A DNA stretch of 64,000 nt from NCBI GenBank assembly GCA_021648025.1, contig JAKITO010000006.1, positions 1-64,000 of the forward strand, given 5' to 3'. The notes under the pieces were generated by a model. The model was given only the letters and a program-made list of their open reading frames with translations. It had not been told where the DNA came from and ran no database searches. The position numbers and the translations under genes are program-made. The stretch comes from Paracoccaceae bacterium. Its GTDB lineage: Bacteria > Pseudomonadota > Alphaproteobacteria > Rhodobacterales > Rhodobacteraceae. Positions within the stretch are counted from its first letter, which is position 1. Every line of letters starts with the position of its first letter. Below, one piece after another: positions 1,654-21,224 of the stretch.

Positions 1654-2592
1654 ATGATCCTGTGTTGCGGTGAAGCATTGATCGACATGATCCCGGTGCG
1701 GACCACCGGCGGGTCGCCGGGATTTGTGCCTTGCAATGGCGGGGCAGCATTGAACACCGCCATTTCCCTTGCCCGGATGGGTGCATCTTCGGGCCTGTTG
1801 ACGGGTCTTTCACACGATCCGTTTGGCCGCCAGATTGTTGCAGCACTGGACGCGGCCGGGGTCGACCGTTCACTGAGCGTGACAACGGGCCGCCCGACAA
1901 CCTTGGCGTTTGTGCATCTGGAGGCGGGCGAAGCCAGCTATACGTTTTACGATGAAAACTCGGCCATGCGGATGATGACGCCGGATGATCTGCCACCGCT
2001 TCCTGATCACGTCAGATGCCTGTTGCTGGGCGGTATCAGCCTGTGCCACACGCCCGGCGCGGATATGTTTGAGGCGCTGAGCAAACGCGGTGGGGGGCGT
2101 TTGATCATGTTTGACCCCAATGTACGGTCCAGCTTTATCGGCGATGAACCGGCTTACCGCGCCCGCTTGGGCCGGCTGATGGCACGCGCTGATATCGTCA
2201 AGCTCTCAGGGCCTGATCTGGATTGGATCGACGCGGGTGACGTCCCTTGGCAGGACAGGCTGGACAAGGTTCTGCATTCCGGCCCCTCATTGATCCTGTT
2301 CACCCGCGGCGCCAAAGGCGCGATTGCCTGCCACCGCGATGGCCGCCGCATCAAAGTTGCGGCGCCAAAGGTCGAGGTTCTTGATACGGTTGGTGCGGGG
2401 GATGCCTTTAATGCCGGATTTCTGGCGCGTTTGCAGGCGTTGGACCTGCTGAATCCAAAGAAGATCGAGACCATGAAAACAGACGTCCTGCGCGATTGCC
2501 TGACAGGCGCGAACAACGCCGCGGCCGCATCGCTTTCACGTTCCGGCGGGGCCTGGGGCAGTCCCATTGAGGGCATTTCGCCCTTGTCTTAA
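1654..2592 (+). CDS. PfkB-family sugar kinase, probable fructokinase
   Basis: Ribokinase/PfkB-fold kinase of 312 residues. The N-terminal segment CGEALIDMIP and the glycine pair in NGGAALNTA form the substrate side. The C-terminal signature DTVGAGDAFNAGF (244-256) contains the catalytic base Asp250 and the anion hole. The overall pattern matches fructokinases (EC 2.7.1.4). 2-keto-3-deoxygluconate kinase is an alternative that sequence alone cannot exclude. It sits directly behind gap and 48 bp ahead of the amidohydrolase operon. A purine-rich aagggg about 12 nt upstream of the ATG serves as RBS. Confidence 0.8.
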   Translation: MILCCGEALIDMIPVRTTGGSPGFVPCNGGAALNTAISLARMGASSGLLTGLSHDPFGRQIVAALDAAGVDRSLSVTTGRPTTLAFVHLEAGEASYTFYDENSAMRMMTPDDLPPLPDHVRCLLLGGISLCHTPGADMFEALSKRGGGRLIMFDPNVRSSFIGDEPAYRARLGRLMARADIVKLSGPDLDWIDAGDVPWQDRLDKVLHSGPSLILFTRGAKGAIACHRDGRRIKVAAPKVEVLDTVGAGDAFNAGFLARLQALDLLNPKKIETMKTDVLRDCLTGANNAAAASLSRSGGAWGSPIEGISPLS

Positions 2593-2640: not shown

Positions 2641-4269
2641 ATGTCGGATACCACCATATTCAGCGCAAAAAAGATCATTACAATGGATCCGAATTTGCCA
2701 GAGGCAACCCATGTGGCCGTGCGGGATGGCAAGATTCTTGCCGTTGGTGGTGCGGATTGCGCGGATCAGTGGGGCGGAGGTGTTTTGGATAAATCCATGG
2801 AGGGCATGTTCCTTAGCCCCGGGTTTGTCGAAGGGCATGCGCATATGATGGCCGGGGCGATGTGGAATTACGCCTATGCCGGGTATCATGACCGGATTGA
2901 CCCCAAAGGTAAGCTGTGGCGTGGGATGACCACCATTGACGAGGTGATCGCCGGGCTGAAAGAATTTTGCGATACCCTGCCGGATGGCGCGCCATTGATT
3001 GGCTGGGGTTTTGATCCGATTTTCCTGACCACGCAGCGACTTAGCCGCGCCCATCTGGACCAGGTCAGCGCCGACCGCCCGATTGCCATCGTGTTTTCCA
3101 ATTTCCACCTGCTGTGCGTCAATTCCAAAGCGTTGGAGATGGCCGAATATTCCAGCGCCACCAATGTCGAAGGGGTGGTCAAGGGCGCGGATGGAAACCC
3201 CACCGGAGAGTTGCAGGAAATGGCCGCGATGTTCCCGGTGATGCGCCGCCTTGGCATCGAATTCGGGGCATTGTCCCAGACCGAGGACGCCATTCGCACC
3301 TATGGAGAGGTTGCCTGCCGGGCTGGCGTTACTACGGTGACGGACCTGTTTTCGATGATGCAGGACAGTGATCTGGACCTGATGTTGAAAGTGACCGGTG
3401 GCGCGGATTATCCGGTGCGCATTGTTTCGGTTCAGGGGGCGATGGGCACCAGTCCCGAAGACCTTGCCAAACGGGCGCTGGAGTTGCGTGGGAAATCAAC
3501 TGACAAGCTGCGGCTGGGTGCGGTCAAGCTGATGACTGACGGGTCCATTCAGGGCTGGACGGCGCGGGTCAAATGGCCCGGCTATATCGACGGTCAGCCC
3601 AATGGCATCTGGAATACCCCGCCCGAGTTGATCCGGGAACTTTGCCAGGTGATGCAGGCAAATGGCGTCCAGATGCATATCCATGTCAACGGTGATGAGG
3701 CGGCCGAGGTTTCCATTGATGCCATTGAAAAAGCAATCCAAAAGGCCCCCTGGGACGGCCACCGCCATGTGCTGCAACATTGCCAGATGATGAGTGCCGA
3801 TCAATATCGCCGCTGCGCCGAGATGGGTATTTGCACCAACATATTTTCGAACCACATCTGGTATTTTGGTGACCAGCACAGCGCCCGGACCCTGGGCCAC
3901 GAGCGCGCGCGCCGGATGAACGCCGCGCGCACCGCTTTGGATGCAGGCGTGCATATCGCCTTGCATTCGGACGCGCCTGTCACGCCAATGGGGCCGCTGT
4001 TCACCGCCTGGTGCGCCGTTAACCGCCGGACCATGACCGGCAAGACCCTTGGTGCCAATCAGCGCATTACCGTGCTTGAAGCGCTTTATGCGATCACTTT
4101 GGGCGCGGCCTTTACTCTGCGGATGGACGGCGAAATTGGCAGCATCGAACCCGGCAAAAAGGCTGATTTTGCCATTCTGGGTGATGACCCGACGGCGGTG
4201 GATCCAATGGCGCTCAAGGACGTGCCGGTGCTGGGCACGGTATCTGGCGGGATGGTGCATCTGCTATGA
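2641..4269 (+). CDS. YtcJ-type metal-dependent amidohydrolase
   Basis: Amidohydrolase-superfamily (YtcJ/exoenzyme-regulatory AepA-like) protein of 542 residues, the usual size. Metal-ligand motif GHAH has His66 and His68. Further probable ligands lie in MHIHVNGD (His346, His348), HVLQHC, and HSDAP (Asp444). These TIM-barrel enzymes hydrolyse C-N bonds of small amides or cyclic amides; the substrate is unknown here. It is the first gene of a chain in which each following gene overlaps its predecessor: G3E GTPase, pxpB, pxpC, pxpA, CoA transferase. A role in opening a cyclic amide or lactam related to 5-oxoproline is inferred only from that context. No signal peptide, so cytoplasmic. Confidence 0.85.
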   Translation: MSDTTIFSAKKIITMDPNLPEATHVAVRDGKILAVGGADCADQWGGGVLDKSMEGMFLSPGFVEGHAHMMAGAMWNYAYAGYHDRIDPKGKLWRGMTTIDEVIAGLKEFCDTLPDGAPLIGWGFDPIFLTTQRLSRAHLDQVSADRPIAIVFSNFHLLCVNSKALEMAEYSSATNVEGVVKGADGNPTGELQEMAAMFPVMRRLGIEFGALSQTEDAIRTYGEVACRAGVTTVTDLFSMMQDSDLDLMLKVTGGADYPVRIVSVQGAMGTSPEDLAKRALELRGKSTDKLRLGAVKLMTDGSIQGWTARVKWPGYIDGQPNGIWNTPPELIRELCQVMQANGVQMHIHVNGDEAAEVSIDAIEKAIQKAPWDGHRHVLQHCQMMSADQYRRCAEMGICTNIFSNHIWYFGDQHSARTLGHERARRMNAARTALDAGVHIALHSDAPVTPMGPLFTAWCAVNRRTMTGKTLGANQRITVLEALYAITLGAAFTLRMDGEIGSIEPGKKADFAILGDDPTAVDPMALKDVPVLGTVSGGMVHLL

Positions 4270-5156
4270 GGGACGACCGCCTGCCCATGACGGTGATCAG
4301 CGGCTATCTGGGCGCTGGTAAAACCACGCTGATCAACCGGATATTGTCCGAGGATCACGGGCTGCGCCTATTGGTGATGGTCAATGATTTTGGGGCGGTG
4401 AATATCGACGCCGCCCTGCTGGTGTCCGCCGAAGAAGACACGTTGACCCTGACCAATGGCTGTGTCTGCTGCACCATGGGCGCCGACCTTTTCATGGCGA
4501 TGGGCCGCGCATTGGACCGCACCCCGCGCCCCGACCACCTGATCGTCGAAGCCAGCGGGATCGCGGACCCGGTGCGCATTGCCAATGCCGCGATTGCCGA
4601 ACCGGACATGCGCTATGGCGGCATTGTCACGCTGGTTGACGCAGGCAATTTCGACGGGTTGATCAATGACCCCCAGATTGGCCCGCAGATCGTCGGGCAG
4701 GTGCAGCCGGCCGATACGGTTGTGGTCACCAAAACCGGCGAAATTCCCGGCCCCTTGCGCCAGCAACTGACCAAAATGGGCGTGCCGGTGGTGATCTGTG
4801 CCAATGATGACACCCCCATCACCGACCTGATCCTGTCGGGTGCCACCGAGCCGTTGATGGCCAAAACCCCTGGTAAGGCCCACGCGGCTTATGTCTCATG
4901 GTCCTATCAAGGTGACGCAACCCTTACCCGCGCCCAGCTTGATACCGCCCTGCGCCGCCGCCCCGACGCCCTGTTTCGCCTTAAGGGCATGATCGCCACC
5001 AGGGAACGCGGCACCTTGTTGGTGCAGGTGGTCGGGCGTAACGTGGACATGCGCCCAAGCCCCGAAGATGTCCCCACCCAACTTGTCGGCATCGGCCTTG
5101 CTGCGCGCATCACCCGGGCCGAGATTGACGCCTGGTGGCAGGAAAACACAACCTGA
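4266..5156 (+). CDS. G3E-family (CobW/YjiA-like) GTPase metallochaperone
   Basis: 296 residues. P-loop GYLGAGKTT (13-21); the hallmark metal-binding GCVCC motif (65-69); TKTGE in the place of the NKxD guanine-specificity motif, which is unusual; and a short CobW C-terminal domain. G3E proteins insert metal ions (Zn, Co, Ni, Fe) into target proteins with GTP hydrolysis. The start codon overlaps the amidohydrolase stop (ATGA), so the two are probably translationally coupled. The economical reading is a metal-loading factor for that amidohydrolase. It is not evidence for cobalamin synthesis: no cob genes are nearby. Confidence 0.85.
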   Translation: MRDDRLPMTVISGYLGAGKTTLINRILSEDHGLRLLVMVNDFGAVNIDAALLVSAEEDTLTLTNGCVCCTMGADLFMAMGRALDRTPRPDHLIVEASGIADPVRIANAAIAEPDMRYGGIVTLVDAGNFDGLINDPQIGPQIVGQVQPADTVVVTKTGEIPGPLRQQLTKMGVPVVICANDDTPITDLILSGATEPLMAKTPGKAHAAYVSWSYQGDATLTRAQLDTALRRRPDALFRLKGMIATRERGTLLVQVVGRNVDMRPSPEDVPTQLVGIGLAARITRAEIDAWWQENTT

Positions 5157-5941
5157 TGGCTGAACCTGCACCCCACTTTCCAGTCATCCGCAACATTGGT
5201 CTGGACGGCATGCTGGTCACCTTCGCCAGCCATCTAAGCGAGGCTTCGAACCGTGCTGCCCTGGCCTTTCACGCCCAATTGCAGCACCTCTTGCAAGACG
5301 GCATAGCCGAGACATCAACTTCACTGGCCTCAGCCTTTGTGCGCTTTGATCCGCTGTGCCTTAGCCACGCCGCCTTGAATGCCCGGCTTTCCGAGTTACT
5401 GCACTCGCGCGACTGGTTTGAGGCCGAAATGCCTGCCGGGCGCAAGTTCTGGCGCATCCCGTGCCTTTATGGCACCGATCTGGCCCCGCAACTGGCCGAA
5501 GCGGCGGACGCGGCGGGACTAAGTGAAACCCAAGCCATTGAACGGTTGGGTGGCTCAAGGGTGCGGGTTCTTGCAATCGGCTTTGCCCCGGGCCAGCCAT
5601 ACCTCGGGCCTTTGGCCGCCGAATGGAACCTGCCCCGCCTGAAAGCGTTGCAACAAGTCCCCGCAGGGGCGCTGGTTCAGGCAATCAGCCAGTTTGTCCT
5701 GTTCACTGGCCCGGCCCCGACTGGCTGGCGCCACGTCGGCCAAACCGCATTCAGCTGTTTTCGCCAGGGTGGTACACCGCCAATCCCCCTGACGCCGGGT
5801 GATGAAGTGGTTTTCGAACCGGTCTCGCGCGTTGATTTCCTGAAAATCCGCGGGTCGACCACCGATGGCTCCGGAGGAGCCATTGCCACAGAGATAGACA
5901 CAGAGATAGACACAGAGACAGACACAGAGATAATCCCATGA
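5156..5941 (+). CDS. pxpB: 5-oxoprolinase subunit PxpB (carboxyltransferase subdomain 1, KipI-like)
   Basis: Carboxyltransferase domain subdomain A/B protein: GFAPGQPYLG is the family signature, followed by GALVQA-type and GWRHVGQT segments. With PxpA and PxpC it forms the ATP-dependent prokaryotic 5-oxoprolinase, which opens pyroglutamate to glutamate. I start at the ATG at 5156, which overlaps the GTPase stop (TGATG) and follows GGCAGGAAAA; a GTG at 5135 is possible but lacks that RBS spacing. Oddity: the last ~16 residues (D-T-E-I repeats) are encoded by a 12-bp tandem repeat that looks recently added and is not part of the usual family C-terminus. Confidence 0.88.
   Translation: MAEPAPHFPVIRNIGLDGMLVTFASHLSEASNRAALAFHAQLQHLLQDGIAETSTSLASAFVRFDPLCLSHAALNARLSELLHSRDWFEAEMPAGRKFWRIPCLYGTDLAPQLAEAADAAGLSETQAIERLGGSRVRVLAIGFAPGQPYLGPLAAEWNLPRLKALQQVPAGALVQAISQFVLFTGPAPTGWRHVGQTAFSCFRQGGTPPIPLTPGDEVVFEPVSRVDFLKIRGSTTDGSGGAIATEIDTEIDTETDTEIIP
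5887..5932 (+). repeat. 12-bp tandem repeat in the pxpB 3' end
   Basis: CACAGAGATAGA is repeated about 3.8 times (5887-5898, 5899-5910, 5911-5922 with one change, 5923-5932 partial). As 12 is a multiple of three, it adds Asp-Thr-Glu-Ile units to PxpB without disturbing the frame. The pxpC start codon follows six bases later. Confidence 0.9.
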
Positions 5942-6963
5942 GCGGGCTTGTCGTTCATAACATCAGCCCCATCGCCTCACTACAGGACATGGGGCGGGCG
6001 GGCTATTTGAAACAGGGCCTGTCGCGCGGCGGGGCCGCTGACCGTCAGGCATTGGCAGAAGGGGCAGCTTTGCTGGGTCAAAGCCCAGGAATTGCGGCTT
6101 TGGAAATGGCCGGAACCGGCGGTGAATTCGAAGCAACGGGCGACCTGCGCATTGCCCTGACCGGCGCGCCGATGGTGGCAATGCTTGATGGCGTCGTGCT
6201 GGCATGGAATGCCAGTCACGCGCTGGTCAAAGGCCAGCGCTTGATCCTGGGTGCTGCCAAATCAGGCGTCTACGGCTATCTGCACTTTGGGGGTGGTATC
6301 GACGCGCCCGAATTCCTTGGCTCACGCTCGGCGCATCTGTTGGCTGGAATTGGCCGTAGGGTTCAGACAGGGGATCATCTGACATGTGGGCCCGATCAGG
6401 GTGAGGCAACCGGGCTGGGACTGAAGGTCTCGGACCGCTTTCACGGCGGCCCGGTGCGGGTTGTGCCCAGCGTTCAGACCAACCTTTTCGCGCCGGATGT
6501 GCTGGAACGGTTTCAGGTCACAAAATTCACCCGTGGCCCGCGTGCCAACCGGATGGGGGTCGAGATGCTTTCAGGCGGGGGTGGTTTCACTGCTGACGGG
6601 CAGCTCGACATCCTGTCCGAAGTCATTGTTCCCGGCGACATCCAGATGACCGGGGACGGCCTGCCGTTTGTTTTATTGCCCGAATGCCAGACCACAGGCG
6701 GTTATCCCCGCATCGCCACGGTGATCCCCTGCGATTTGGGACTGGTGGCGCAAGCCCCTGCCGGGGCGGCAATCACTTTTGAATTTGTCACGCTTGATCA
6801 GGCGCTTGCGGCGCAAGCGCGGTATGGCGCGACATTGAAAGGGTTGAAAAATGCCTGCCAACCGCTGATCCGCGATGTTGCGAATATGGGCGATCTGTTG
6901 TCCTATCAACTGATCAGCGGGGCCATTTCGGCGCATGACGACAAGGAGGACGGCAATGGCTGA
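5938..6963 (+). CDS. pxpC: 5-oxoprolinase subunit PxpC (carboxyltransferase subdomain 2, KipA-like)
   Basis: 341-residue biotin-dependent-carboxyltransferase-like protein. The N-terminal ...SLQDMGRAGYLKQGLSRGGAAD motif is the signature of the family, with ALEMAGTGG and the C-terminal PECQTTGGYPRIATVI. It is the partner of PxpB in 5-oxoprolinase. It overlaps pxpB by ATGA (5938-5941) and runs 8 bases into pxpA. Homologues include urea-amidolyase carboxyltransferase halves, but the neighbouring pxpA supports the oxoprolinase assignment. Confidence 0.9.
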   Translation: MSGLVVHNISPIASLQDMGRAGYLKQGLSRGGAADRQALAEGAALLGQSPGIAALEMAGTGGEFEATGDLRIALTGAPMVAMLDGVVLAWNASHALVKGQRLILGAAKSGVYGYLHFGGGIDAPEFLGSRSAHLLAGIGRRVQTGDHLTCGPDQGEATGLGLKVSDRFHGGPVRVVPSVQTNLFAPDVLERFQVTKFTRGPRANRMGVEMLSGGGGFTADGQLDILSEVIVPGDIQMTGDGLPFVLLPECQTTGGYPRIATVIPCDLGLVAQAPAGAAITFEFVTLDQALAAQARYGATLKGLKNACQPLIRDVANMGDLLSYQLISGAISAHDDKEDGNG

Positions 6964-7726
6964 CACAGTCGATTTCAACTCGGACATGGGCGAAAGCTTT
7001 GGCCCCTGGAAAATGGGCGATGACGCTGCCCTTCTAGAGATTGTTACCTCTGCCAATATCGCTTGTGGTTTTCACGCCGGTGACCCGGACGTGATGGCCA
7101 CAACCATGCGCAATGCCATGGCCAACAACGTCGGCATCGGCGCGCACCCCGGCTTTGCCGACTTGCAGGACTTTGGGCGTCGGCGAATGACCTTGCCCAA
7201 AGAGCGGCTGGAAAATCTGGTCCGCTATCAGTTGGGCGCGGCGATTGGCATGGCCAAAGGTTTGGGCTGCAAGATACGTCATTTCAAGTTGCACGGGGCA
7301 ATGTCAAACATGTCAGCCGAAGACGGCGACATGGCGCGAACCTTGTATGAGGCCGCCCTGTCGGTGGATCCGGATATCATCATCATGGTACAGGCAACCA
7401 CGGCGCAGCAACAGGTGGTTATTGATCTTGGTTGCGCCTGGGCGGGTGAGATATTTGCAGATCGCGCTTACAATGATAACGGAACACTGGTGGATCGCAG
7501 CCAACCGGGTGCTGTCATCCATGACGCCGAACTGGCCGGACAGCGCATCCTTGAAATGGTACAGGAAAGCGCGATCATCACGGTGTCCGGCAAACGCATA
7601 CCTGCGCCCATCGACACAATCTGCCTGCACGGAGACACGGCCGAAGCCGTCGCCATTGCCGCGTCTGTCAAACAAACCCTACTGTCAGGCGGTGTTGAAC
7701 TGGCGCAGTTTCAGGGCCGCAGATAA
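6956..7726 (+). CDS. pxpA: 5-oxoprolinase subunit PxpA (LamB/YcsF family)
   Basis: 256 residues starting at the ATG at 6956, chosen because a strong AAGGAGGA lies at 6943-6950; an upstream ATG at 6935 has no such site. The N-terminal DFNSDMGESFG (6-16) and the following SANIACGFHAGDP are diagnostic of the LamB/YcsF family. Its catalytic subunit role in ATP-dependent 5-oxoproline hydrolysis is known from the E. coli and Bacillus families. Its stop codon shares a base with the next start (TAATG). Confidence 0.92.
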   Translation: MADTVDFNSDMGESFGPWKMGDDAALLEIVTSANIACGFHAGDPDVMATTMRNAMANNVGIGAHPGFADLQDFGRRRMTLPKERLENLVRYQLGAAIGMAKGLGCKIRHFKLHGAMSNMSAEDGDMARTLYEAALSVDPDIIIMVQATTAQQQVVIDLGCAWAGEIFADRAYNDNGTLVDRSQPGAVIHDAELAGQRILEMVQESAIITVSGKRIPAPIDTICLHGDTAEAVAIAASVKQTLLSGGVELAQFQGRR

Positions 7727-8829
7727 TGCTTGGCGGGGTCCGTATTGTCGAAGTCGAAGGTCTGGGGCCGGGCCCGTTTGCGGCAATGCTGTTGGCGGAC
7801 CTTGGTGCAGATGTGATCGTGGTTCACCGTAAAGGCGGCAAGGGACTTGGCGCGCAACCGATCATCGACCGGGGCAAACGCTCAATCGCGCTTGATCTGA
7901 AAGACGCCGAAGACATCGCCATTTTCAAACAATTGATCCGGCGGGCCGACGGGCTGATCGAAGGTTTTCGCCCCGGTGTGATGGAACGCCTTGGCATCGG
8001 CCCTGATGACTGCCATGCCCTGAATCCTGCGCTGATCTATGGGCGCATGACCGGTTGGGGCCAGACCGGCCCTCTCAGCCGCGCGGCGGGCCATGACCTC
8101 AACTATATCGCAATGTCGGGCGCGCTTTGGTATGCGTCCGAACCGGGTCAGCCGCCATTGACCCCGCCCACTTTGGTGGGCGATATCGGTGGCGGGGCGA
8201 TGTATTTGGCGGTGGGGATGCTGGCGGGCGTGATCAACGCGCGCGCCACCGGACAGGGGAGTGTGGTTGACGCGGCGATTTACGACGGATCGGCGCATAT
8301 GATGAACCTGATCCTGACCATGCGCCAAATGGGTCAGTTTGAAAATACCCGGGGTGCCAGCCTTTTGGACGGGCCACACTGGTGCCGGTCTTATCGCACT
8401 TCGGATGGTGGGTTCATGGCCGTCCAGTGCCTTGAGCCCAAGTTCTACTCAGAATTCCTGAACCTTCTGGGCCTCGCAGAGGACGCCGATTTTGCGCAGC
8501 AAAATCAACAGGCACTCTGGCCCGTCCTGACCGACCGCCTGACCGGTATCTTCATCAGCAAAACCCGTGCGGAATGGAGCGATATTTTCCTTGGAACCGA
8601 CGCCTGCGTCGCCCCTGTCCTGAGTCCGGACGAAGCACTTGCCCATCCTCAAAACCTTGCCCGCAACACCTGGTCTTCGCCCGGTGGCGTCCTTCAGGCC
8701 GCCCCGGCCCCTCGGTTCGATGGGCAAACACCGTCGCAGCCCAACCCAATCCCAACCCGCGATCAACATCGTCAGGAAATCCTGGACGGCCTCAATAAAC
8801 CCCGCGAGGAAAGCCCCTCAAGGGCTTGA
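7726..8829 (+). CDS. CaiB/BaiF family CoA transferase or alpha-methylacyl-CoA racemase
   Basis: 367-residue class III CoA-transferase/racemase fold. The N-terminal GLGPGPFAAMLLADLGADVI is the CoA-binding signature. AGHDLNYIAMSG places His123, and LVGDIGGG places Asp153; this His/Asp pair corresponds in spacing to the proton-transfer pair of alpha-methylacyl-CoA racemases. It overlaps pxpA by one base as the last gene of the coupled operon. Whether it racemises a 2-methylacyl-CoA or transfers CoA to a product of the amidohydrolase/oxoprolinase steps is open. Confidence 0.82.
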   Translation: MLGGVRIVEVEGLGPGPFAAMLLADLGADVIVVHRKGGKGLGAQPIIDRGKRSIALDLKDAEDIAIFKQLIRRADGLIEGFRPGVMERLGIGPDDCHALNPALIYGRMTGWGQTGPLSRAAGHDLNYIAMSGALWYASEPGQPPLTPPTLVGDIGGGAMYLAVGMLAGVINARATGQGSVVDAAIYDGSAHMMNLILTMRQMGQFENTRGASLLDGPHWCRSYRTSDGGFMAVQCLEPKFYSEFLNLLGLAEDADFAQQNQQALWPVLTDRLTGIFISKTRAEWSDIFLGTDACVAPVLSPDEALAHPQNLARNTWSSPGGVLQAAPAPRFDGQTPSQPNPIPTRDQHRQEILDGLNKPREESPSRA

Positions 8830-8839: not shown

Positions 8840-9460
8840 TCAGATATCAAAAAACACCGTCTCATCCGGCCCTTGCAGGTAGATATCAAACCGGTACACC
8901 ACCTTGCCATCCTCCTCGGACCGCTTTGCAATCAATGTCTCTCGGCGGCGTTCCCACTCAATCCCCGTGATCACCGGATCGCTTGCATTGGCCGCATCCT
9001 CATCGTCAAAATAAACCCTGGTACTCAGCCCCACATTGATGCCGCGTGCCACCAGCCACAGGTTGATATGCGGTGCCATCATCTGGCCATTGCGCCCCAT
9101 TACCATTCCCGGTTTGACCGTATCAAACCCCCATTCACCCGTGTCAAAATCAGTAATCACCCGGCCCCAACCACGAAACCCTTCTTCGACGTCACCCTCA
9201 CTCTCTGGATGGGCGTAAACCCCGGCGCAATTGGCCTGCCATGCCTCAAGCAGTACGTCCTTGACCGGGCTGCCAACGCCGTCAATCACCAACCCTTCAA
9301 CCCGAATGCGTTCACCGGACGCATGCGGACCGGCGATATCCCAACCCAGTTCGCGGTTATAGATTTCGAACCCCGCCGCCCCCGGAGCCAACCCGATATG
9401 CACAAATGGCCCTGCGGTTTGTGACGGCGTTTCGCGCAGGTATTTCAAAGATTGTACCAT
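8840..9460 (-). CDS. pcaG: Protocatechuate 3,4-dioxygenase alpha subunit
   Basis: 206 residues, typical alpha-subunit length. Beta-sandwich intradiol dioxygenase fold: TPSQTAGPFVHIGL at the N terminus, RIRVEGLVIDGVGSPVKDVLLEAWQAN in the middle and APHINLWLVARGINVGLSTRVYFDDE towards the end. The alpha subunit lacks the complete Fe ligand set, as expected. With PcaH it cleaves protocatechuate to beta-carboxy-cis,cis-muconate. Its ATG overlaps the pcaH stop by one base, with the RBS inside the last pcaH codons. It is the last gene of the pobA-pcaC-pcaH-pcaG run. Confidence 0.95.
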   Translation of the reverse strand: MVQSLKYLRETPSQTAGPFVHIGLAPGAAGFEIYNRELGWDIAGPHASGERIRVEGLVIDGVGSPVKDVLLEAWQANCAGVYAHPESEGDVEEGFRGWGRVITDFDTGEWGFDTVKPGMVMGRNGQMMAPHINLWLVARGINVGLSTRVYFDDEDAANASDPVITGIEWERRRETLIAKRSEEDGKVVYRFDIYLQGPDETVFFDI

Positions 9461-10188
9461 CAGTTGCCCTCCAGCCGATTCTCAAACAAGGTCGATCGCC
9501 TGCCGCGCAAAATGATGTCGAATTTATAGGCGATACTGTCGAGCGGAATAGTCGCGTTCATATCCAGCGGTGCGATCAACTGATCAATTGCCGACTTGTC
9601 AGGGATTGCATTGACGATCGGGCACAGGGGGATCAGCGGGTCACCCTCAAAGTACATCTGGGTGATCAGGCGCTGGGCAAAACCGCAGCCGAACACCGAA
9701 AAATGGATGTGTGCGGGCCGCCAAGAGTTGATCCAGTTGCGCCAGGGGTATGCGCCAGGTTTCACGGTTCGGAAAAAGTAATAGCCGTCCTGGTCCGTCA
9801 AAGTCCGCCCACAACCGCCGAAATTCGGATCTATCGGTGCCAGATAGGTGTCTTTCTTGTGCCGATACCGCCCGCCCGCATTGGCCTGCCATATCTCCAC
9901 CAACGTGTTCGCAACGGGGCGTGCATTTTCGTCCAGAACTCGACCGTGAACAATGATCCGCTCGCCGATGGGCGATTGATCTTTGGCGGCAAAGTTCATC
10001 AAAAGATCATGGTCAAGTGCCGCAATATCACCGTGCCCAAACACCGGGCCGGTGATTTCACTGGACGTATTTTCCAATGATATCAGCGCCTTTTGCGGTG
10101 ATCGTGCCACCGAAGTCTTGTAGTTCCGCGAAAGGGCAGGCGGGTGCCAGTTGCGGTCACGTTGATAAAATTCACCTTGTTCCGGCAT
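9460..10188 (-). CDS. pcaH: Protocatechuate 3,4-dioxygenase beta subunit
   Basis: 242 residues. The four non-haem Fe(III) ligands are visible: Tyr108 (in GGRYRHK), Tyr147 (in GAYPWRN), and His160 and His162 (in [12 protein letters not shown]). Their spacing is that of characterised PcaH. This is the catalytic subunit for intradiol ring cleavage of protocatechuate. A GAGG lies 5 nt upstream of the ATG. The 62 bp between pcaC and pcaH hold a CCCCGGA/TCCGGGG palindrome. Confidence 0.96.
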
Positions 10189-10214
10189 TGGGGCCTCGTG
10201 CTGTTGAAACGTCG

Positions 10215-10233
10215 CCCCGGATCAGGTCCGGGG
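10215..10233. repeat. REP-like palindrome CCCCGGA-tcagg-TCCGGGG
   Basis: A perfect 7-bp inverted repeat with a 5-base spacer lies between pcaC and pcaH. A related sequence with the same GGTCAGGTCCGGGG core occurs at 18331-18354. Palindromes of this type are often dispersed in alphaproteobacterial intergenic DNA. Within the pca operon it could cause mRNA processing or partial termination. Confidence 0.5.
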
Positions 10234-10250
10234 TTGTGATGGCTAGGGGT

Positions 10251-10631
10251 TCAGACATCTTTTTCCATCTCGGCATAGGTTGTACGCGCCAGTTTCAGCG
10301 CGTGATTGGCGCGGGGCACCCCGGCATAGATCGCCACATGCTGGAACACTTCCATAACGTCCTGTTTGCTGGCGCCGGTGCGGGCAGTGGCGCGGATGTG
10401 CATGGGGATTTCGTCGAAATTGCCCAAGGCCGCCAACAAGGCAAGGGTCAACATCGAACGCTCGCGTGCCGGGATCGCGTCGCTGGCCCAGACATTGCCC
10501 CAGGCGGTTTCGGTGATCAGGGTCTGGAATGGTTCGTCAAATGCGGTCTTGCCCACCTCGGCCCGGTCCACATGGGCGTCGCCCAGCACCTGGCGGCGAA
10601 CCTTCATGCCTGTCTTGTAACGATCTGTCAT
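10251..10631 (-). CDS. pcaC: 4-carboxymuconolactone decarboxylase
   Basis: 126 residues with the ATG at 10631, giving the standard N terminus MTDRYKTGMKVRRQVLGDAH; an upstream in-frame ATG at 10667 would overlap pobA and add 12 atypical residues. AhpD-like all-alpha fold with the conserved VLGDAHVDRA start and HIRATARTGASKQDVMEVFQHVAIYAG core. It decarboxylates gamma-carboxymuconolactone to the beta-ketoadipate enol-lactone. It lies 16 bp downstream of pobA. The partner steps pcaB and pcaD are not in the window. Confidence 0.93.
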   Translation of the reverse strand: MTDRYKTGMKVRRQVLGDAHVDRAEVGKTAFDEPFQTLITETAWGNVWASDAIPARERSMLTLALLAALGNFDEIPMHIRATARTGASKQDVMEVFQHVAIYAGVPRANHALKLARTTYAEMEKDV

Positions 10632-10647
10632 CCAAGATCCCAATCCA

Positions 10648-11904
<1,257 letters not shown>

Positions 11905-11980: not shown

Positions 11981-14860
11981 TTAAAGAAGATCGGTGAACG
12001 ACACGGTTTGGTCGGCGAACACCAGCTGGTCGATATCAATCAACTTGTCCCGGCCCTCATAATTGCCATCGCTCCCGCCATCGGCACTGTCGGTGACAAT
12101 CAGCTCGATCACGTTTTCACCACGCGTGCTGTTGTAATAGGTGTGGGTTTCAAAGGTAAAGTCATCCAGATTGCCGTCAAAGAACGCCTTGTCATTTTTT
12201 GCTTTGCCTTTGTCGTTCCATTCGTTGCCCGAGATATAGTCATCACCAAGCCCGCCGTAAAACTTGTCACCGCCGGCACCGCCGTAAAGAACGTCGTTAC
12301 CGTTGCCGCCTTTTAATACGTCAAAGCCATTGCCGCCATATAGCCGGTCGTCCTGGCCCCCGCCCAGCAGTTTGTCATTGCCATCGCCGCCTTGCAGATT
12401 ATCCGCGCCAAGGCCGCCGATCAACAGGTCGTTGTTGTCATGGCCGTTCAGATCATCATCGCCCAGGCGGCCAATGATGATGTCGGATCCGTCCAGCCCG
12501 TCAATCCGGTTGCCGCCCCGTCCACCAAACAGAAAGTCATCGGTTCTGACCGTGAAATCCCGAAACTGGATAAATTCAACATCCTCGTCAAGGATGATGT
12601 TCTGCTGGCCTTTTGAGATTTCAAGCACGCCCTGACTGTTCCAGGAAAAGGAGTATCCAGACGCAGAGCCGTTCAAATAGGTATAATCATCCCGGGTATC
12701 CGAGCCAAAGATGTCTTTGCTGTCCAGCTGCGTGTCAAACACCATAAAGTTCGAAATCGTGCCGTCGAAATGGCTATTGATTTTGTTCACTTCGCCCGGT
12801 TCGTTGTTCCAGCCAGCAGCGCCAACGATCAAGGCCTCTTTGTTGACGCCCCAATTGACCTTGATATCCTTGTCATATGCGACCCGCGCGCCATTCAGAA
12901 AAAGCTCGGCACCTTGTGGGCCGAACGACAGGGCAAAATCATAAGACCCGCCCGCGGATATGGCATGCTTGACCTCAAGGTAATGCGATTGTTCACCATC
13001 CTGAATGCGCACCACCAGGTGGCCCAAGGGGTGGACATAGGCCGTCATATGCCCGCCTTCGCCATACCCGGATGCGTCTTTGGAAAACAGCGCCTGATAG
13101 CCGTCCAAACTGGTCGGGCTAAAGGAAAAGGCAATGGTTCCCTTGGTCAGGTCAACCTGCTTTGAGTGATCGAACACCAAAGCGATGCGGTCATCAGATG
13201 AAAATTCAGTGCTTCCGACAGTGGCCAGCACAGGATCGCCGGTGCCCTTGGCCAGGCCAAGATCCTCGGCCGTGGGCCGGCTGAGTGGGGGTTTGATAGT
13301 GCCGGTATCAGCAGAGATGTCAGTCGGCGCCAGCGCCTCTTTCAGGTTGTCGATTGAGTTGATGATTCCATAGGTTGGCGCGGCTGTATGTTCGATATCC
13401 GCCAAGGTGATCAGATCCCCATAGACGGTGACCGTCCCCAGCCGGTCATCATCATGCGCGCCCCCGCCATTGCCCTGATCGGAATACAACGAGATGATCG
13501 AGTGATCAATCACCCCGTCGCCATCGGCGTCACCGTACCTGATCGAACTGATTTGCGTGGTGTGACCCTCAAGTACAATCCGGTCGCCTTCGCCGCGCGA
13601 ATAATCGGTGATCACGTCATGGCCCAGATAGTCGACCCAATGGTCGTGCAGATATTGGTTCTCGCCCGCCACGCCGGCCCAGTTGATGGTGCCGTCGTCG
13701 CGGGTGTGCTTGGTGATAATGCGTTCCTTGGCATTGATAAGCGTTTGGAAGTAAAAGATATCCGCGCCGCTGCCACCCGTCAGGACATCATCCCCCGGAA
13801 TCGGCTGGTTGGGATAAACCTGCCCATCGGTCAGCTCGTTCACCGCATCGGTTTCGTCGCGGCCCGGCTGGTAGAAAATCTCAGGTTCGCGGGCATCGGC
13901 CTGACTGATCAGCAGGTCATTGCCGGCCCCGCCCCACAGGCGGTCTTCGCCGTGGCCGCCATCCAGGATGTCGTCGCCCAAACCGCCCCAAAGCCTGTCG
14001 TTGCCATAGCCGCCCTGCAACACATCATTGCCGTTAAGACCTTTGACCATGTCGTTGCCGCGCCCGGCATTGATACCATCATCCTCGGCGGTGCCGGTGA
14101 CAGTTGTGCCTGCCTGGCCTTTGATGATCATGTTCAGATCGCGTGACATTGTGCCATCTTGGTTGACGCCGAAATCGGCCAGAAGATCCAGCAGGGTATC
14201 CGAAGCCACGTCCAGTTGTTCAAACAATGGCACCAGATTGGCCATGTTGGCGTCGAACCGCGCGTCGCCGCCCAAGCCGGGTTCAATCGCGTTGGCCAGG
14301 GTGATCATGTTGTTGCCGCCCAGTTGCTGGTCATACATCTGAACATCGCTTACATGTCCCAGTAACAACGAATGCGCATCGTCTTCGTCCTTGTTCCAGG
14401 CATGGGTGCCACCAATCACCAGATCATTCTTGTTGGCTTCCAGGCCTTGGGTTATGCCCGGCTCAGAGGCGACCAACACGCCGTTCAGCCAGATATTCAA
14501 CCCGGCCTCGCCAAAGGAAAAGGCAAACTGATAGGTGGTGTGCGAAGACAGGATGACGTCCGGCACGGTGATGGATTCGGCGCCCTGATCGGTCTCGATC
14601 GACATGACAATCTGCCCGTCCTTGATCCAGACGGTAAAATCCCCGGCGGTGGTGCCCTCCTGATCTTTTGAGATCAGCGCATAGTTCCCTGCCAACCGGT
14701 CAATCGAAAAGCCAAGCGATATGGTGCCTGCCTCCAACGCCATCGCGCTTTTGTGATTGAGATCTTTGTAGTCGCCATAACTACCGGTATAGGTGTGTGA
14801 ACGGACGGATGAGTATACAGAATCTATGTTCAGCGGTTGCGAATTTCCGGCATCAGGCAT
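11981..14860 (-). CDS. Large secreted LamG-RTX-LamG-RTX calcium-binding protein
   Basis: 959 residues with no N-terminal signal peptide, as expected for a type I secretion substrate. Domain order: concanavalin-like/LamG (about 30-195); RTX block GGxGxD nonapeptides (about 256-316); a region with an EF-hand-like DADGDGVID (444-452); second LamG (about 550-715); second RTX block (about 775-880); and an acidic C-terminal region (880-959) that may carry the secretion signal. RTX repeats fold on Ca2+ outside the cell; LamG domains usually bind glycans or other surfaces. No catalytic domain was recognised, so an adhesin or matrix protein is likelier than an enzyme. The ATG is preceded by AGAGGA. 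No type I exporter genes are nearby. Confidence 0.85.
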   Translation of the reverse strand: MPDAGNSQPLNIDSVYSSVRSHTYTGSYGDYKDLNHKSAMALEAGTISLGFSIDRLAGNYALISKDQEGTTAGDFTVWIKDGQIVMSIETDQGAESITVPDVILSSHTTYQFAFSFGEAGLNIWLNGVLVASEPGITQGLEANKNDLVIGGTHAWNKDEDDAHSLLLGHVSDVQMYDQQLGGNNMITLANAIEPGLGGDARFDANMANLVPLFEQLDVASDTLLDLLADFGVNQDGTMSRDLNMIIKGQAGTTVTGTAEDDGINAGRGNDMVKGLNGNDVLQGGYGNDRLWGGLGDDILDGGHGEDRLWGGAGNDLLISQADAREPEIFYQPGRDETDAVNELTDGQVYPNQPIPGDDVLTGGSGADIFYFQTLINAKERIITKHTRDDGTINWAGVAGENQYLHDHWVDYLGHDVITDYSRGEGDRIVLEGHTTQISSIRYGDADGDGVIDHSIISLYSDQGNGGGAHDDDRLGTVTVYGDLITLADIEHTAAPTYGIINSIDNLKEALAPTDISADTGTIKPPLSRPTAEDLGLAKGTGDPVLATVGSTEFSSDDRIALVFDHSKQVDLTKGTIAFSFSPTSLDGYQALFSKDASGYGEGGHMTAYVHPLGHLVVRIQDGEQSHYLEVKHAISAGGSYDFALSFGPQGAELFLNGARVAYDKDIKVNWGVNKEALIVGAAGWNNEPGEVNKINSHFDGTISNFMVFDTQLDSKDIFGSDTRDDYTYLNGSASGYSFSWNSQGVLEISKGQQNIILDEDVEFIQFRDFTVRTDDFLFGGRGGNRIDGLDGSDIIIGRLGDDDLNGHDNNDLLIGGLGADNLQGGDGNDKLLGGGQDDRLYGGNGFDVLKGGNGNDVLYGGAGGDKFYGGLGDDYISGNEWNDKGKAKNDKAFFDGNLDDFTFETHTYYNSTRGENVIELIVTDSADGGSDGNYEGRDKLIDIDQLVFADQTVSFTDLL

Positions 14861-17025: not shown

Positions 17026-18318
17026 ATGACCAACCAATCAACACCCCCTAAGGGGATTACCCGGCGAAATCTGATCAAGACCGTGGCTGCGGGTGCTGCT
17101 GTCACGTCGCTGCCGCTTTGGGCACGCTATGCGCAGGCACAAAGTTCAGAGCCGATTCGCATCGGTTTTCAGGCGCATAAGACCGGCATTGGAGCCGCCT
17201 ATGGCCGTTGGTATGACCGTACCACCATGGCAGCAGCCAAGGCGATCAACGATGCAGGCGGCATCAATGGCCGACCGGTGGAAATTGTACTGGAAGACGA
17301 TGGCACCGATCCCAAGCGCGGCGCAGAGGTGGTCGAGAAATTCGCCACTCAATTGAATTGCGACGTCGGCTTTGGCACCTTGTTCAGCCATGTCGTCATC
17401 GGTTCGGCCCCCCGCGCGGGCGAATTGAAACTGCCTTATTTTGTGGTTTCCGAAGGGCATCACGTGGCCAGCGGCATGCTTAATCGCTGGACCATCCAGC
17501 CCGGCATTACGGATGTGAAAAGCCAGGTTCAGGCGATGGCACCCTTTGTCAGTTCGACCCTTGGCAAGAAGGTCACGATGGTTTTCCCCGACTTTGCCTT
17601 TGGCCACGACCACCGCGACTTTTTCACCGCGGCGCTAGAGGCGCAGGGCGGCGAGGTTCTGGCCCATATCGCCATTCCGCCGTCCGAGACCAGTTTCACC
17701 AAGTATTTCCCGAAAATCCCCCGTGATACCGAAGTGATCTATCACGTCATGGTCGGCCCGGCGGTTCTGACATTCGTCAAGGAACTGGGCGAGTTCTTTG
17801 GCCCTTCGCGCCCTGAGATGTTCGGCTTTATCGACAGCCTTGAAGCTGTTGATCTGGCCAACCCCGGTCTTGAATACCTGGATGGCTCGTATTTCTGGGA
17901 AGGCATGCCCCGGTACGCGCAGGCTGATCAGACCTCGTTTGACAAGAATTTTCGCGCGGCTGTGGGGATTGATGCCAACGGAGCCTCTGTCAGCGATCCG
18001 GCGGATGTGTCGACCTATGCGCATATGTTCGGCTGCTGGGAGACGTTGTATGTGATCAAGGCGGGCATGGAATCGGCCGGTTATCAGGGCCATGGCGATC
18101 GCGGCAAACTGATCGAGGCAGTCGAGGCGATCACCGACATGCCCCATTCCAACGAACACCCGCAAGGGGCCAAATTGTTCAACGGCAAGACCCATCAGGT
18201 GTTCGGGCCGCAGTACATATCCAAGATGGAGGGTGGCAAGCTGAACGTGGTCCACACCGCGTCGATCGAAGACACGCTGTATCCGGACGAGGTAGATTAC
18301 ACCAAACAACCCCTGTAA
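17026..18318 (+). CDS. ABC transporter periplasmic substrate-binding protein, branched-chain amino acid/aromatic type
   Basis: 430 residues from the ATG at 17026, preceded by GGGAGAAAAG. The N terminus has twin arginines (13-14) and a hydrophobic stretch ending at AQAQ (about 36-39), so it is exported. The body is a type I periplasmic-binding fold: IRIGFQAHKTG...AAKAINDAGGINGRPVEIVLEDD. Members bind branched-chain amino acids, amides, urea or aromatic acids. It heads a liv-type importer set (permeases and ATPases follow) that lies between the pob/pca operon and the reductive dehalogenase. A halogenated or hydroxylated benzoate is therefore a plausible ligand by context only. Confidence 0.88.
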   Translation: MTNQSTPPKGITRRNLIKTVAAGAAVTSLPLWARYAQAQSSEPIRIGFQAHKTGIGAAYGRWYDRTTMAAAKAINDAGGINGRPVEIVLEDDGTDPKRGAEVVEKFATQLNCDVGFGTLFSHVVIGSAPRAGELKLPYFVVSEGHHVASGMLNRWTIQPGITDVKSQVQAMAPFVSSTLGKKVTMVFPDFAFGHDHRDFFTAALEAQGGEVLAHIAIPPSETSFTKYFPKIPRDTEVIYHVMVGPAVLTFVKELGEFFGPSRPEMFGFIDSLEAVDLANPGLEYLDGSYFWEGMPRYAQADQTSFDKNFRAAVGIDANGASVSDPADVSTYAHMFGCWETLYVIKAGMESAGYQGHGDRGKLIEAVEAITDMPHSNEHPQGAKLFNGKTHQVFGPQYISKMEGGKLNVVHTASIEDTLYPDEVDYTKQPL

Positions 18319-18330
18319 ACGGCAATGCTG

Positions 18331-18354
18331 CTCCGGGCCAGGTCAGGTCCGGGG
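18331..18354 (+). terminator. Hairpin after the binding-protein gene, REP-like
   Basis: CTCCGGGCC-aggtca-GGTCCGGGG forms a 9-bp stem in RNA with two G-U pairs, 12 bp after the stop codon. It lacks a T-run, so it more likely trims or stabilises the binding-protein mRNA than acts as a full terminator. It shares its right half with the palindrome in the pca operon. Confidence 0.45.
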
Positions 18355-18383
18355 CGGCGTAGTCTGTTGTATTGACGCCGCAC

Positions 18384-18604
18384 ATGGAAATTGCGACGCC
18401 GATGAATTTTCGCCTGGGTTTGGAATTAGACAGGACGTGACGACTTTGAATACCATTCTTTCAATCTGCCAAACCGGCGGGGCAACCGCGCCAACCGCGC
18501 CAGAGGGCATGGCGAAGATCGAGTCTGCTGGTGAGGCCACCCTTAAGGGGTTTCATGCGCCGGTTGATGATTTCCGCGTAAAAGATGTGATTGAGATTTC
18601 GTGA
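18384..18604 (+). pseudogene. Decayed class III adenylate/guanylate cyclase fragment
   Basis: Frame from the GTG at 18437 ends with GEATLKGFHAPVDDFRV, which matches the C-terminal end of class III cyclase domains (G-E-x-x-LKG-x-x-x-PV-x-x-[FY]-RV). In a different frame at 18402 the stretch MNFRLGLELDR resembles the upstream 'FRIGINLGD' strand of the same domain. The catalytic metal and transition-state residues between them are missing. I infer a gene relic with deletion and frameshift, stranded between the binding protein and livH. Only the C-terminal match is reasonably clear. Confidence 0.4.
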
Positions 18605-18652
18605 TGCCATTACTGAATTGCCCCTGGAATAACGTTGTGACAACCTGACCAA

Positions 18653-19579
18653 ATGGATTTTGTTCCCTACCTCATACTGGCCTCTCTTGAAGGCGCTGTG
18701 ACGGCCGCCGTGCTGGCATTGACGGCCGTGGGCCTGTCGTTGGTATTTGGGGTCATGCGGGTGGTTAATGTCGCCCACGGAGAGTTCTTCATGCTGGGCG
18801 CGGTGCTGGCCTGGTGGGTGACGCAAAGCATTGGCGGGCATCCGGCCATTGGCTTTGGCGTCGCGTTGCTGGTGGTGCCCGTGATGGTCGGGCTGATCGC
18901 TGTGGTGGCGGATTTGACGGTGTTGAAACGTATCAATTATGACCCCGAGCGGACGATCATTGCCACCATCGGCATCCTTTATATCCTGCAACAGGTCACC
19001 TTGATGACCTATGGGCCGGATGCAAGACCGGTTGAGCCGCCGTTCAATACCCGTCTGGCAATACCGTGGTTCGAATTTGCCGATGGCGGCTTGCAGATGT
19101 ACTGGCCCTGGGGGCTGAGCACCACCAGTTACAAGTTGGCCGTCATCGGTTCGGCTGCACTTGTGTTGCTGGGGGTCTGGGGGCTGATGGCGCGAACCAA
19201 AATCGGCCTGTTGATGCGCGCCACCCAGTTGGACCGTGAAATGGCGATGGCATTTGGCATCCCGGTCGAGCGGATTTATGCGGTTGTTTTCGGCCTTGGC
19301 GCCGGGCTGGCGGCGTTGGGCGCGGTGCTGATCGTGCCGATCCAGCAGGCGCATTATCTGATGGGGCATGATCCCTTGTTGCTGGCCTTTATCGTGGTGA
19401 TCATCGGCGGGCTGGGCAGCTTGCCGGGCACCGTGGTGGCCGCGATCCTGATCGGGTTAAGCGATGGCATCATCTCGGTGTTCTTTTCGCCGACCCTGGC
19501 CAAGATACTGGCCACCCTGTTGGTGGCGATGGTGCTGGTGTTTCGTCCGCAAGGCCTGTTTGGGGTGAAATCTTCGTGA
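18653..19579 (+). CDS. LivH-type ABC transporter permease
   Basis: 308-residue inner-membrane permease of the branched-chain amino acid family. The N-terminal ALTAVGLSLVFGVMRVVNVAHGEF and C-terminal VVIIGGLGSLPGTVVAAILIG are family hallmarks; about eight membrane spans. It forms the translocation pore together with the next gene, with which it overlaps (GTGA). The gap to the binding-protein gene is 334 bp and contains a cyclase relic, so permease expression may rely on read-through or its own promoter. Confidence 0.9.
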   Translation: MDFVPYLILASLEGAVTAAVLALTAVGLSLVFGVMRVVNVAHGEFFMLGAVLAWWVTQSIGGHPAIGFGVALLVVPVMVGLIAVVADLTVLKRINYDPERTIIATIGILYILQQVTLMTYGPDARPVEPPFNTRLAIPWFEFADGGLQMYWPWGLSTTSYKLAVIGSAALVLLGVWGLMARTKIGLLMRATQLDREMAMAFGIPVERIYAVVFGLGAGLAALGAVLIVPIQQAHYLMGHDPLLLAFIVVIIGGLGSLPGTVVAAILIGLSDGIISVFFSPTLAKILATLLVAMVLVFRPQGLFGVKSS

Positions 19580-20520: not shown

Positions 20521-21224
20521 CGATCCTGTCAACACGCGGCCTTTGCAAGAACTTTGATGGTCTGACGGCAGTGCAGGATGTTGATTTTGACCTGCCCCAA
20601 GGGCAGATCAGGGCGCTGATTGGCCCCAATGGCGCCGGTAAAACCACCCTTGTTGGCCTGCTCTGTGGGCGGATAACGCCAACCGCAGGCAGCGTCACCT
20701 TTGACGGGCGCGACATTTCAAACCTGCCGGCCCACAAGCGCATCAACCTTGGCATCGCCTATACCTTTCAGGTCACGTCGGTGTTTGCCAACCTCAGCGT
20801 GACCGAGAATGTCGCCCTTGCCGCGCGTCGCCGGTTCAGCGGTGCGGATGTGGCCGGCGCGGTGCAGGAGGCCCTGGCCAAGGTCGGCCTGAATGCGCGC
20901 TCGGAGCAGAATGCGGGCGATCTCAGCTATGGCCACCAACGCCTGCTGGAAATTGCCATGGGGCTGGTGCAACAACCACGCCTGTTGATCCTGGACGAAC
21001 CGACGCAGGGGCTGGCCGACACCGAAGTGGCGGATTTCAAGGCATTGGTGCGCGAACTGGCGCGCACCGCAACGGTGTTGTTGATCGAACACAACATGAG
21101 CGTGGTGATGGAACTGGCCGATTATGTTACCGTCCTGAACTTTGGCCAGATACTGGCCGAAGGCACCCCCCAGGAGATACACGCCAACCCGGACGTGCAG
21201 GCCGCCTATCTGGGGACCAAGTGA
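20517..21224 (+). CDS. LivG-type ABC transporter ATP-binding protein
   Basis: 235 residues starting at the ATG overlapping the livM stop; the open frame extends upstream into livM but has no reason to start there. Walker A GPNGAGKTT (36-44); a modified signature LSYGHQRLLEI in place of LSGGQ, as is usual for LivG; Walker B LLILDEPTQGL; switch His in LLIEHNM. It powers import through the LivH/M-type permeases. Confidence 0.92.
   Translation: MTILSTRGLCKNFDGLTAVQDVDFDLPQGQIRALIGPNGAGKTTLVGLLCGRITPTAGSVTFDGRDISNLPAHKRINLGIAYTFQVTSVFANLSVTENVALAARRRFSGADVAGAVQEALAKVGLNARSEQNAGDLSYGHQRLLEIAMGLVQQPRLLILDEPTQGLADTEVADFKALVRELARTATVLLIEHNMSVVMELADYVTVLNFGQILAEGTPQEIHANPDVQAAYLGTK

What the first reader, a model, noticed from the sequence alone, without database searches (positions are those of the whole stretch)
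2641..8829. Overlapping operon coupling a YtcJ amidohydrolase and G3E metallochaperone to 5-oxoprolinase and a CaiB-type enzyme
Six genes are linked by stop/start overlaps (4266/4269, 5156, 5938/5941, 6956/6963, 7726). PxpABC alone opens 5-oxoproline. The additional metal hydrolase with a dedicated G3E GTPase and a CoA transferase/racemase suggest a longer pathway, for example opening or deacylating a cyclic amide and channelling an acid to CoA. I know of no defined pathway with exactly this set.
Basis: partly seen in the sequence, partly recalled or inferred. Interest (0 to 1): 0.6.

Follow-up and report, generated by a model that had tools for sequence, protein, structure and literature searches.

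The report
Composite amidohydrolase-oxoprolinase operon, one roseobacter genus
The six overlapping genes are real, but they are three older gene modules (an amidohydrolase with its partner metal-chaperone GTPase, a three-gene pyroglutamate-opening enzyme, and a fatty-acid-type racemase) joined in a single marine bacterial genus, most likely to salvage nitrogen from amide-bound amino acids.

Summary
In detail: six co-directional, overlapping genes at 2641-8829 (YtcJ-type amidohydrolase, COG0523 G3E GTPase, PxpB, PxpC, PxpA, CaiB-family enzyme). The last is an alpha-methylacyl-CoA racemase (AMACR), not a CoA transferase. The order is conserved only within the window's genus. Elsewhere in the family the three modules sit apart. 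(1) YtcJ-G3E is a tight pair: adjacent in 74 of 80 named loci; all 31 family genomes with this YtcJ also carry the G3E, even when unlinked (Fisher 8e-34). It often lies divergent to a peptide-type ABC or TRAP transporter, sometimes with a D-aminoacylase-like amidohydrolase. (2) PxpBCA normally stands alone or follows a TRAP system of the pyroglutamate-binding type, which this genome keeps on another contig. (3) AMACR elsewhere has unrelated neighbours. The YtcJ clade occurs with PxpC in 30 of 31 genomes against 93 of 217 others; tree-aware tests are mixed (bootstrap about 0.001; independent pairs not significant). Best reading: a genus-specific operon for scavenging amide-bound amino acids, with metal-loaded YtcJ releasing acyl or pyroglutamyl units and PxpABC turning 5-oxoproline into glutamate; AMACR is probably unrelated chemistry. 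A single pathway ending in a CoA ester is not supported.

The parts
2641..4269 (+). YtcJ-type metal-dependent amidohydrolase, Amidohydro_3, 542 aa
   Evidence: Pfam PF07969 E 3.5e-79; predicted binuclear-metal ligands H66, H68, K296, H348, H380, D444 invariant in 35 orthologs; AF2 model pLDDT 89.5, nearest solved folds 3igh and 3icj, both uncharacterised
4266..5156 (+). COG0523/CobW-type G3E GTPase, putative metallochaperone for the amidohydrolase, 296 aa
   Evidence: Pfam cobW E 4.9e-40 and CobW_C 9e-9; Walker A GYLGAGKTT and CXCC metal motif GCVCC in the sequence; partner of YtcJ in 31/31 genomes
5156..5941 (+). PxpB-like subunit (CT_C_D domain); alternative GTG start at 5135
   Evidence: Pfam PF02682 E 6.4e-43; TIGR00370 81.5 bits, below its cut-off of 145.6; nearest solved homologs 2phc_B and 5dud_B (YbgJ)
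5938..6963 (+). PxpC-like subunit (CT_A_B domain)
   Evidence: Pfam PF02626 E 8e-65; NF045499 173.8 bits, below its cut-off of 500; nearest solved homolog 5dud_A (YbgK)
6956..7726 (+). PxpA subunit (LamB/YcsF family); alternative ATG start at 6935
   Evidence: NF003814 328.5 bits, above its cut-off of 226; Pfam PF03746 E 1.2e-90; solved homologs 1v6t and YbgL 1xw8
7726..8829 (+). CaiB/BaiF-family alpha-methylacyl-CoA racemase (AMACR) type, 367 aa; the only match at E<=1e-90 in this genome
   Evidence: Pfam PF02515; 312 bits to M. tuberculosis MCR 1x74, aligned catalytic residues H123/H126, D153/D156, E237/E241 kept; one match in G000
1654..2592 (+). PfkB-family sugar kinase, 48 nt upstream of YtcJ; possibly co-transcribed, probably unrelated function
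   Evidence: Pfam PF00294 E 2.3e-38; conservation of this neighbour untestable because the relatives' contigs end inside YtcJ, G3E or PxpB

Best explanation
The operon is a genus-specific fusion of three older modules. SHOWN: YtcJ and its G3E GTPase form a conserved partner pair; PxpBCA is the Rhodobacteraceae subtype that elsewhere often sits with a pyroglutamate-type TRAP transporter; the last gene is an AMACR by sequence. INFERRED: the G3E GTPase loads the binuclear metal site of YtcJ. YtcJ hydrolyses an amide bond in an imported N-acyl or peptide-like amino acid. Some of these products are 5-oxoproline or glutamate, and PxpABC opens 5-oxoproline with ATP to glutamate, using both this supply and the 5-oxoproline imported by the TRAP system encoded elsewhere in the genome (G000 contig 58). 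Co-transcription puts peptide-nitrogen salvage and 5-oxoproline opening under one control. AMACR is the genome's general 2-methylacyl-CoA racemase riding at the 3' end, not a step of the lactam chemistry.
For: YtcJ-G3E adjacency in 74/80 named loci, and 31/31 against 6/217 genomes, including three genomes in which the two genes are unlinked. Six-gene order in the genus: all six in G108, G3E to AMACR in G249, PxpB to AMACR in G248, the rest cut by contig ends. Metal ligands invariant. Neighbours of the YtcJ-G3E pair point to peptide or N-acyl amino acid substrates: divergent SBP5-DppBCDF cassette in 35 loci; divergent TRAP plus D-aminoacylase-like amidohydrolase (closest solved relatives D-aminoacylase 1m7j and N-acyl-D-glutamate deacylase 3gip) in about 16 others; M20 peptidase in the Ruegeria group. 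PxpBCA relatives often follow a DctPQM TRAP whose DctP is closest to 6wgm, 2pfz and 2pfy; two B. pertussis DctP receptors define a pyroglutamic-acid-binding subfamily (PMC5812351, PMC13274462). All four genus genomes keep this DctP but not the SBP5 cassette. YtcJ x PxpC co-occurrence 30/31 against 93/217, Fisher 1.8e-9; dependent-evolution likelihood ratio 17.5, reached by 1 of 1000 simulations; the paralogous YtcJ group shows nothing (Fisher 0.82, chi-square p 0.29).
Against: No YtcJ of this clade has a known substrate, and the nearest solved folds are uncharacterised. Outside the genus YtcJ and PxpBCA are almost never neighbours (only L130, with a distant PxpBC 7 kb away). On independent tree pairs the co-occurrence is 2.7 to 0, not significant; the likelihood test is easily fooled by few origins. 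PxpB and PxpC fall below curated 5-oxoprolinase cut-offs, so their substrate could differ.
Confidence: 0.45

Rival explanations
1. Operon of convenience: the three modules share a transcript by chance of rearrangement and have no common metabolism; YtcJ-G3E acts on its own substrate and PxpABC works with the TRAP system elsewhere.
For: Linkage is confined to one genus; the three modules are separate everywhere else; AMACR and the upstream GAPDH/PfkB look unrelated; independent-pair test of YtcJ x PxpC not significant.
Against: Overlapping starts are mostly kept across species whose proteins are 71-94% identical to the window's; YtcJ x PxpC co-occurrence 30/31 and 1/1000 in the parametric bootstrap.
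Confidence: 0.35
2. One reading: one linear pathway that opens a cyclic amide, deacylates it and hands an acid to CoA.
For: Overlapping order suggests tight co-expression; lactam-type (Pxp), amide (YtcJ) and CoA-ester (CaiB-family) enzymes occur together.
Against: The CaiB-family enzyme resembles a racemase of existing 2-methylacyl-CoA esters, so it should not form a CoA ester; no CoA ligase in the operon; its close orthologs have unrelated neighbours outside the genus; order not conserved.
Confidence: 0.08
3. Zinc-starvation operon: the G3E GTPase serves general zinc allocation and the amidohydrolase is a backup or metal-sparing client.
For: Several COG0523 subfamilies are Zur-regulated (PMC2770081).
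Against: No convincing Zur-like palindrome near the operon (4 weak matches in the whole window against 8.7 expected; the motif tested was from memory); neighbours are transporters and hydrolases, not zinc-stress genes; the G3E tracks one amidohydrolase clade.
Confidence: 0.07

Closest known systems
pxpABC / pxpTABC 5-oxoproline utilisation operon (E. coli, C. glutamicum)
   Same: Same three subunit families; a dedicated uptake system (APC transporter in C. glutamicum, PMC13274462; pyroglutamate-type TRAP in Rhodobacteraceae)
   Different: PxpB and PxpC are a divergent subtype below NCBI cut-offs, and here the triad has left its TRAP locus and joined YtcJ-G3E and AMACR
COG0523 G3E metallochaperone paired with a metal-dependent client (for example CobW with cobalamin synthesis, Nha3 with nitrile hydratase)
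   Same: G3E GTPase with CXCC motif tightly linked to one metalloenzyme, as in the subfamilies described in PMC2770081
   Different: Client is a YtcJ-type amidohydrolase; no such pairing turned up in the text searches made here, though the supplementary list of subfamilies could not be read
PF07969 amidohydrolases (NfdA, AtzC, D-aminoacylase, metalloBSH)
   Same: Same fold family and the same six metal-ligand types as predicted for metalloBSH (PMC13081902)
   Different: Distinct clade of unknown substrate; about 21% identity to the nearest solved structure
Alpha-methylacyl-CoA racemase (M. tuberculosis MCR, 1x74)
   Same: Whole-length match, 312 bits, catalytic residues kept
   Different: Operon context only

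Membership tests
PxpABC ATP-dependent 5-oxoprolinase | All three subunits, PxpA, PxpB and PxpC, encoded together | tested here: met
   Pfam LamB_YcsF, CT_C_D and CT_A_B
PxpABC ATP-dependent 5-oxoprolinase | Subunits reach NCBI curated 5-oxoprolinase cut-offs | tested here: not met
   PxpA above its subfamily cut-off, but PxpB (TIGR00370) and PxpC (NF045499, TIGR00724) below theirs; the same holds for PxpC of a TRAP-linked relative. It is therefore called a PxpABC-like subtype.
PxpABC ATP-dependent 5-oxoprolinase | Hydrolyses 5-oxoproline with ATP | not testable with these tools
   Indirect only: relatives sit behind a pyroglutamate-type TRAP
COG0523 / G3E metallochaperone GTPase | Walker A, CXCC metal motif and CobW_C domain | tested here: met
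COG0523 / G3E metallochaperone GTPase | Delivers metal to its client | not testable with these tools
   Only co-occurrence with YtcJ, 31/31
YtcJ-type amidohydrolase (PF07969) | HxH, Lys, His, His, Asp metal ligands in an amidohydrolase fold | tested here: met
   Invariant H66, H68, K296, H348, H380, D444; fold
Alpha-methylacyl-CoA racemase | His, Asp and Glu catalytic residues of MCR (H126, D156, E241; residue roles from memory) | tested here: met
   H123, D153, E237 aligned
CaiB-type CoA transferase | Closest to, and over the cut-off of, a CoA-transferase model | tested here: not met
   All transferase models far below cut-off; at most 121 bits against 312 for MCR

The most novel reading that the evidence does not exclude
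YtcJ of this clade is a GTPase-metallated amidohydrolase that releases 5-oxoproline (for example from pyroglutamyl peptides or amides), so that the operon encodes a complete, previously undescribed two-step route from amide-bound pyroglutamate to glutamate in marine bacteria.
Probability: 0.15. Interest if true: 0.6.

Novelty: new variant of a known kind. Interest (0 to 1): 0.38.

Why it matters
It isolates a strong, testable metallochaperone-client pair: a G3E GTPase that follows one clade of amidohydrolases of unknown substrate through a whole bacterial family, even when the genes are unlinked. It also narrows the likely substrate to peptide-like or N-acyl amino acids. If YtcJ feeds PxpABC, it would add a source of 5-oxoproline in roseobacters, which are abundant degraders of marine organic matter. 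The six-gene operon itself is a local rearrangement.

Tried and rejected
Long CoA-channelling pathway: rejected because the CaiB-family enzyme is AMACR-like and the order is not conserved. Zinc-regulated operon: no Zur-like site. Promoter and terminator scan: 8 promoter-like sites against 4.3 expected and 11 terminator-like against 8.9 expected, no help in defining the transcript. Structure search of the YtcJ model: nearest folds are uncharacterised. Independent-pair test of YtcJ x PxpC: too few informative pairs. A first bootstrap run timed out, a second failed to start, and it was redone. Paper searches for an amidohydrolase-CobW cassette found nothing. My first working summary that the Dpp cassette accompanies most YtcJ-G3E pairs was wrong: it is 35 of 73 informative named loci; in about 16 of the others a TRAP system with a D-aminoacylase-like gene takes its place.
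Full report
Observation. Pfam and NCBIfam identify an Amidohydro_3 protein, a CobW/COG0523 GTPase, the CT_C_D, CT_A_B and LamB/YcsF subunits of PxpABC, and a CaiB-family protein. The last is an alpha-methylacyl-CoA racemase by similarity: 312 bits to M. tuberculosis MCR over nearly the whole length, with H123, D153 and E237 aligned to H126, D156 and E241; no CoA-transferase model comes near its cut-off. PxpB and PxpC lie below NCBI's curated cut-offs, PxpA above its own subfamily cut-off.

Conservation inside the genus. The window starts contig 56 of a 3.46 Mb, 67-contig genome. Three more genomes of the genus are held. G108 has all six genes in the same order (YtcJ cut by the contig end), G249 has G3E to AMACR and G248 has PxpB to AMACR; what is missing lies beyond contig ends. 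Most overlaps are kept. The operon is therefore not an assembly or annotation accident.

Module 1, YtcJ-G3E. A named-genome scan gave 80 loci at 59-74% identity, nearly all Rhodobacteraceae of the roseobacter group. G3E follows YtcJ in 74; of the six without it, two are cut short by contig ends. In a sample of 248 family genomes, about one per genus, all 31 with this YtcJ clade also have the G3E clade (one only as a contig-edge fragment) against 6 of 217 others, Fisher 8e-34. In G009, G052 and G070 the two genes are far apart and both present. The six genomes with the G3E but no YtcJ carry it at other loci, in several next to an iron-type ABC transporter. This is good evidence for a functional pair; that the GTPase loads metal is inference. 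Six predicted metal ligands of YtcJ are invariant in 35 orthologs, matching the ligand set described for the PF07969 enzyme metalloBSH (PMC13081902). The AF2 model is confident, but its best solved relatives, 3igh and 3icj, are uncharacterised.

What surrounds module 1 elsewhere. In 35 of 73 informative named loci an SBP5-DppBCDF oligopeptide-type ABC operon, usually with a LysR gene, runs divergently upstream. In about 16 others a TRAP transporter and a second amidohydrolase sit there; that amidohydrolase is closest to D-aminoacylase 1m7j and N-acyl-D-glutamate deacylase 3gip. In the Ruegeria group an M20 peptidase follows G3E. All three point to peptide-like or N-acyl amino acid substrates. 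The window's genus has no ortholog of the SBP5 protein (best 29%).

Module 2, PxpBCA. The closest relatives outside the genus (about 60-66%) are either stand-alone triads or follow MarR, a D-amino-acid-dehydrogenase-like flavoprotein, DctP-Q-M and a further transporter. The DctP is closest to 6wgm, 2pfz and 2pfy. Two B. pertussis DctP receptors were crystallised with pyroglutamic acid and define that subfamily (Rucktooa 2007 as cited in PMC5812351; also PMC13274462); that 2pfy and 2pfz are those proteins, and that 6wgm is a pyroglutamate complex, are from memory. All four genus genomes keep a 69-71% ortholog of this DctP, always beside the flavoprotein; DctQ and DctM follow as far as the contigs reach, and PxpBCA is not there. 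So in this genus the oxoprolinase genes left the TRAP locus, or never were there, and sit with YtcJ-G3E. Among the PxpC loci inspected with flanks, only the genus has G3E or AMACR next to the triad.

Module 3, AMACR. The genome has a single match at E<=1e-90, and orthologs at 58-77% identity in other genera have varied, unrelated neighbours. A general role is the simplest reading.

Are modules 1 and 2 linked in function? Thirty of 31 genomes with YtcJ clade A carry the PxpC clade against 93 of 217 others (Fisher 1.8e-9); the paralogous YtcJ clade B shows 10 of 19, no excess. On an rpoB tree of 90 genera the independent-pairs test is uninformative (2.7 to 0, p 0.25). A dependent-versus-independent trait model gives a likelihood ratio of 17.5, reached by 1 of 1000 simulations, against chi-square p 0.29 for clade B. 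I count this as moderate evidence: such tests exaggerate when origins are few, and I chose the score cut-offs after seeing the score distribution.

Mechanism. Shown: gene content, overlaps, pairings, metal ligands, transporter type. Inferred: metal delivery by the GTPase, YtcJ cleaving amide-linked amino acids, PxpABC opening 5-oxoproline to glutamate, AMACR apart. The chief rival is an operon of convenience without shared metabolism.

Novelty. All parts belong to known families. New are the six-gene arrangement, restricted to one genus, and the strength of the YtcJ-G3E pairing, which I did not find described (the supplements of the COG0523 survey could not be read).

Noticed in passing
G000 contig 58:164473-168655 (L242:7082-11264, - strand): Intact D-amino-acid-dehydrogenase-like gene plus DctPQM TRAP of the pyroglutamate-binding type, without the PxpBCA that follows it in many relatives; also a TPP enzyme, a protein of subfamily NF005679 and an agmatinase-family protein nearby.
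   Followed up: partly
window 8840-11841, - strand: Protocatechuate 3,4-dioxygenase alpha/beta, a carboxymuconolactone-decarboxylase-like gene and 4-hydroxybenzoate 3-monooxygenase lie tail to tail with the operon; the same order is kept in G108 and G249.
   Followed up: partly
L130:4438-8944 and about 16 other named loci: Divergent to YtcJ-G3E: a TRAP transporter plus a D-aminoacylase / N-acyl-D-glutamate deacylase-like amidohydrolase, a possible substrate clue.
   Followed up: partly
L351, L353, L354 (G200, G075, G238): A related G3E GTPase sits near an iron-type ABC transporter (binding protein and permease) and a gene that looks like an N-formylglutamate amidohydrolase, in a conserved order.
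   Followed up: no
L041, L088, L097, L112, L122, L125, L141: Tandem duplication of the YtcJ gene, the second copy 58-66% identical to the window protein; in some loci no G3E gene is adjacent.
   Followed up: partly
window 22194-25433, + strand: 1079-aa protein with 4Fe-4S, 2Fe-2S and DmmA-like domains directly after a Urt/Liv-like ABC transporter cluster (17026-21919); unusual multidomain redox protein.
   Followed up: no
window 11981-14860 (-) and 36744-38312 (-): Two RTX calcium-repeat proteins, one with Laminin-G-like domains and one with a serralysin-type C-terminus.
   Followed up: no
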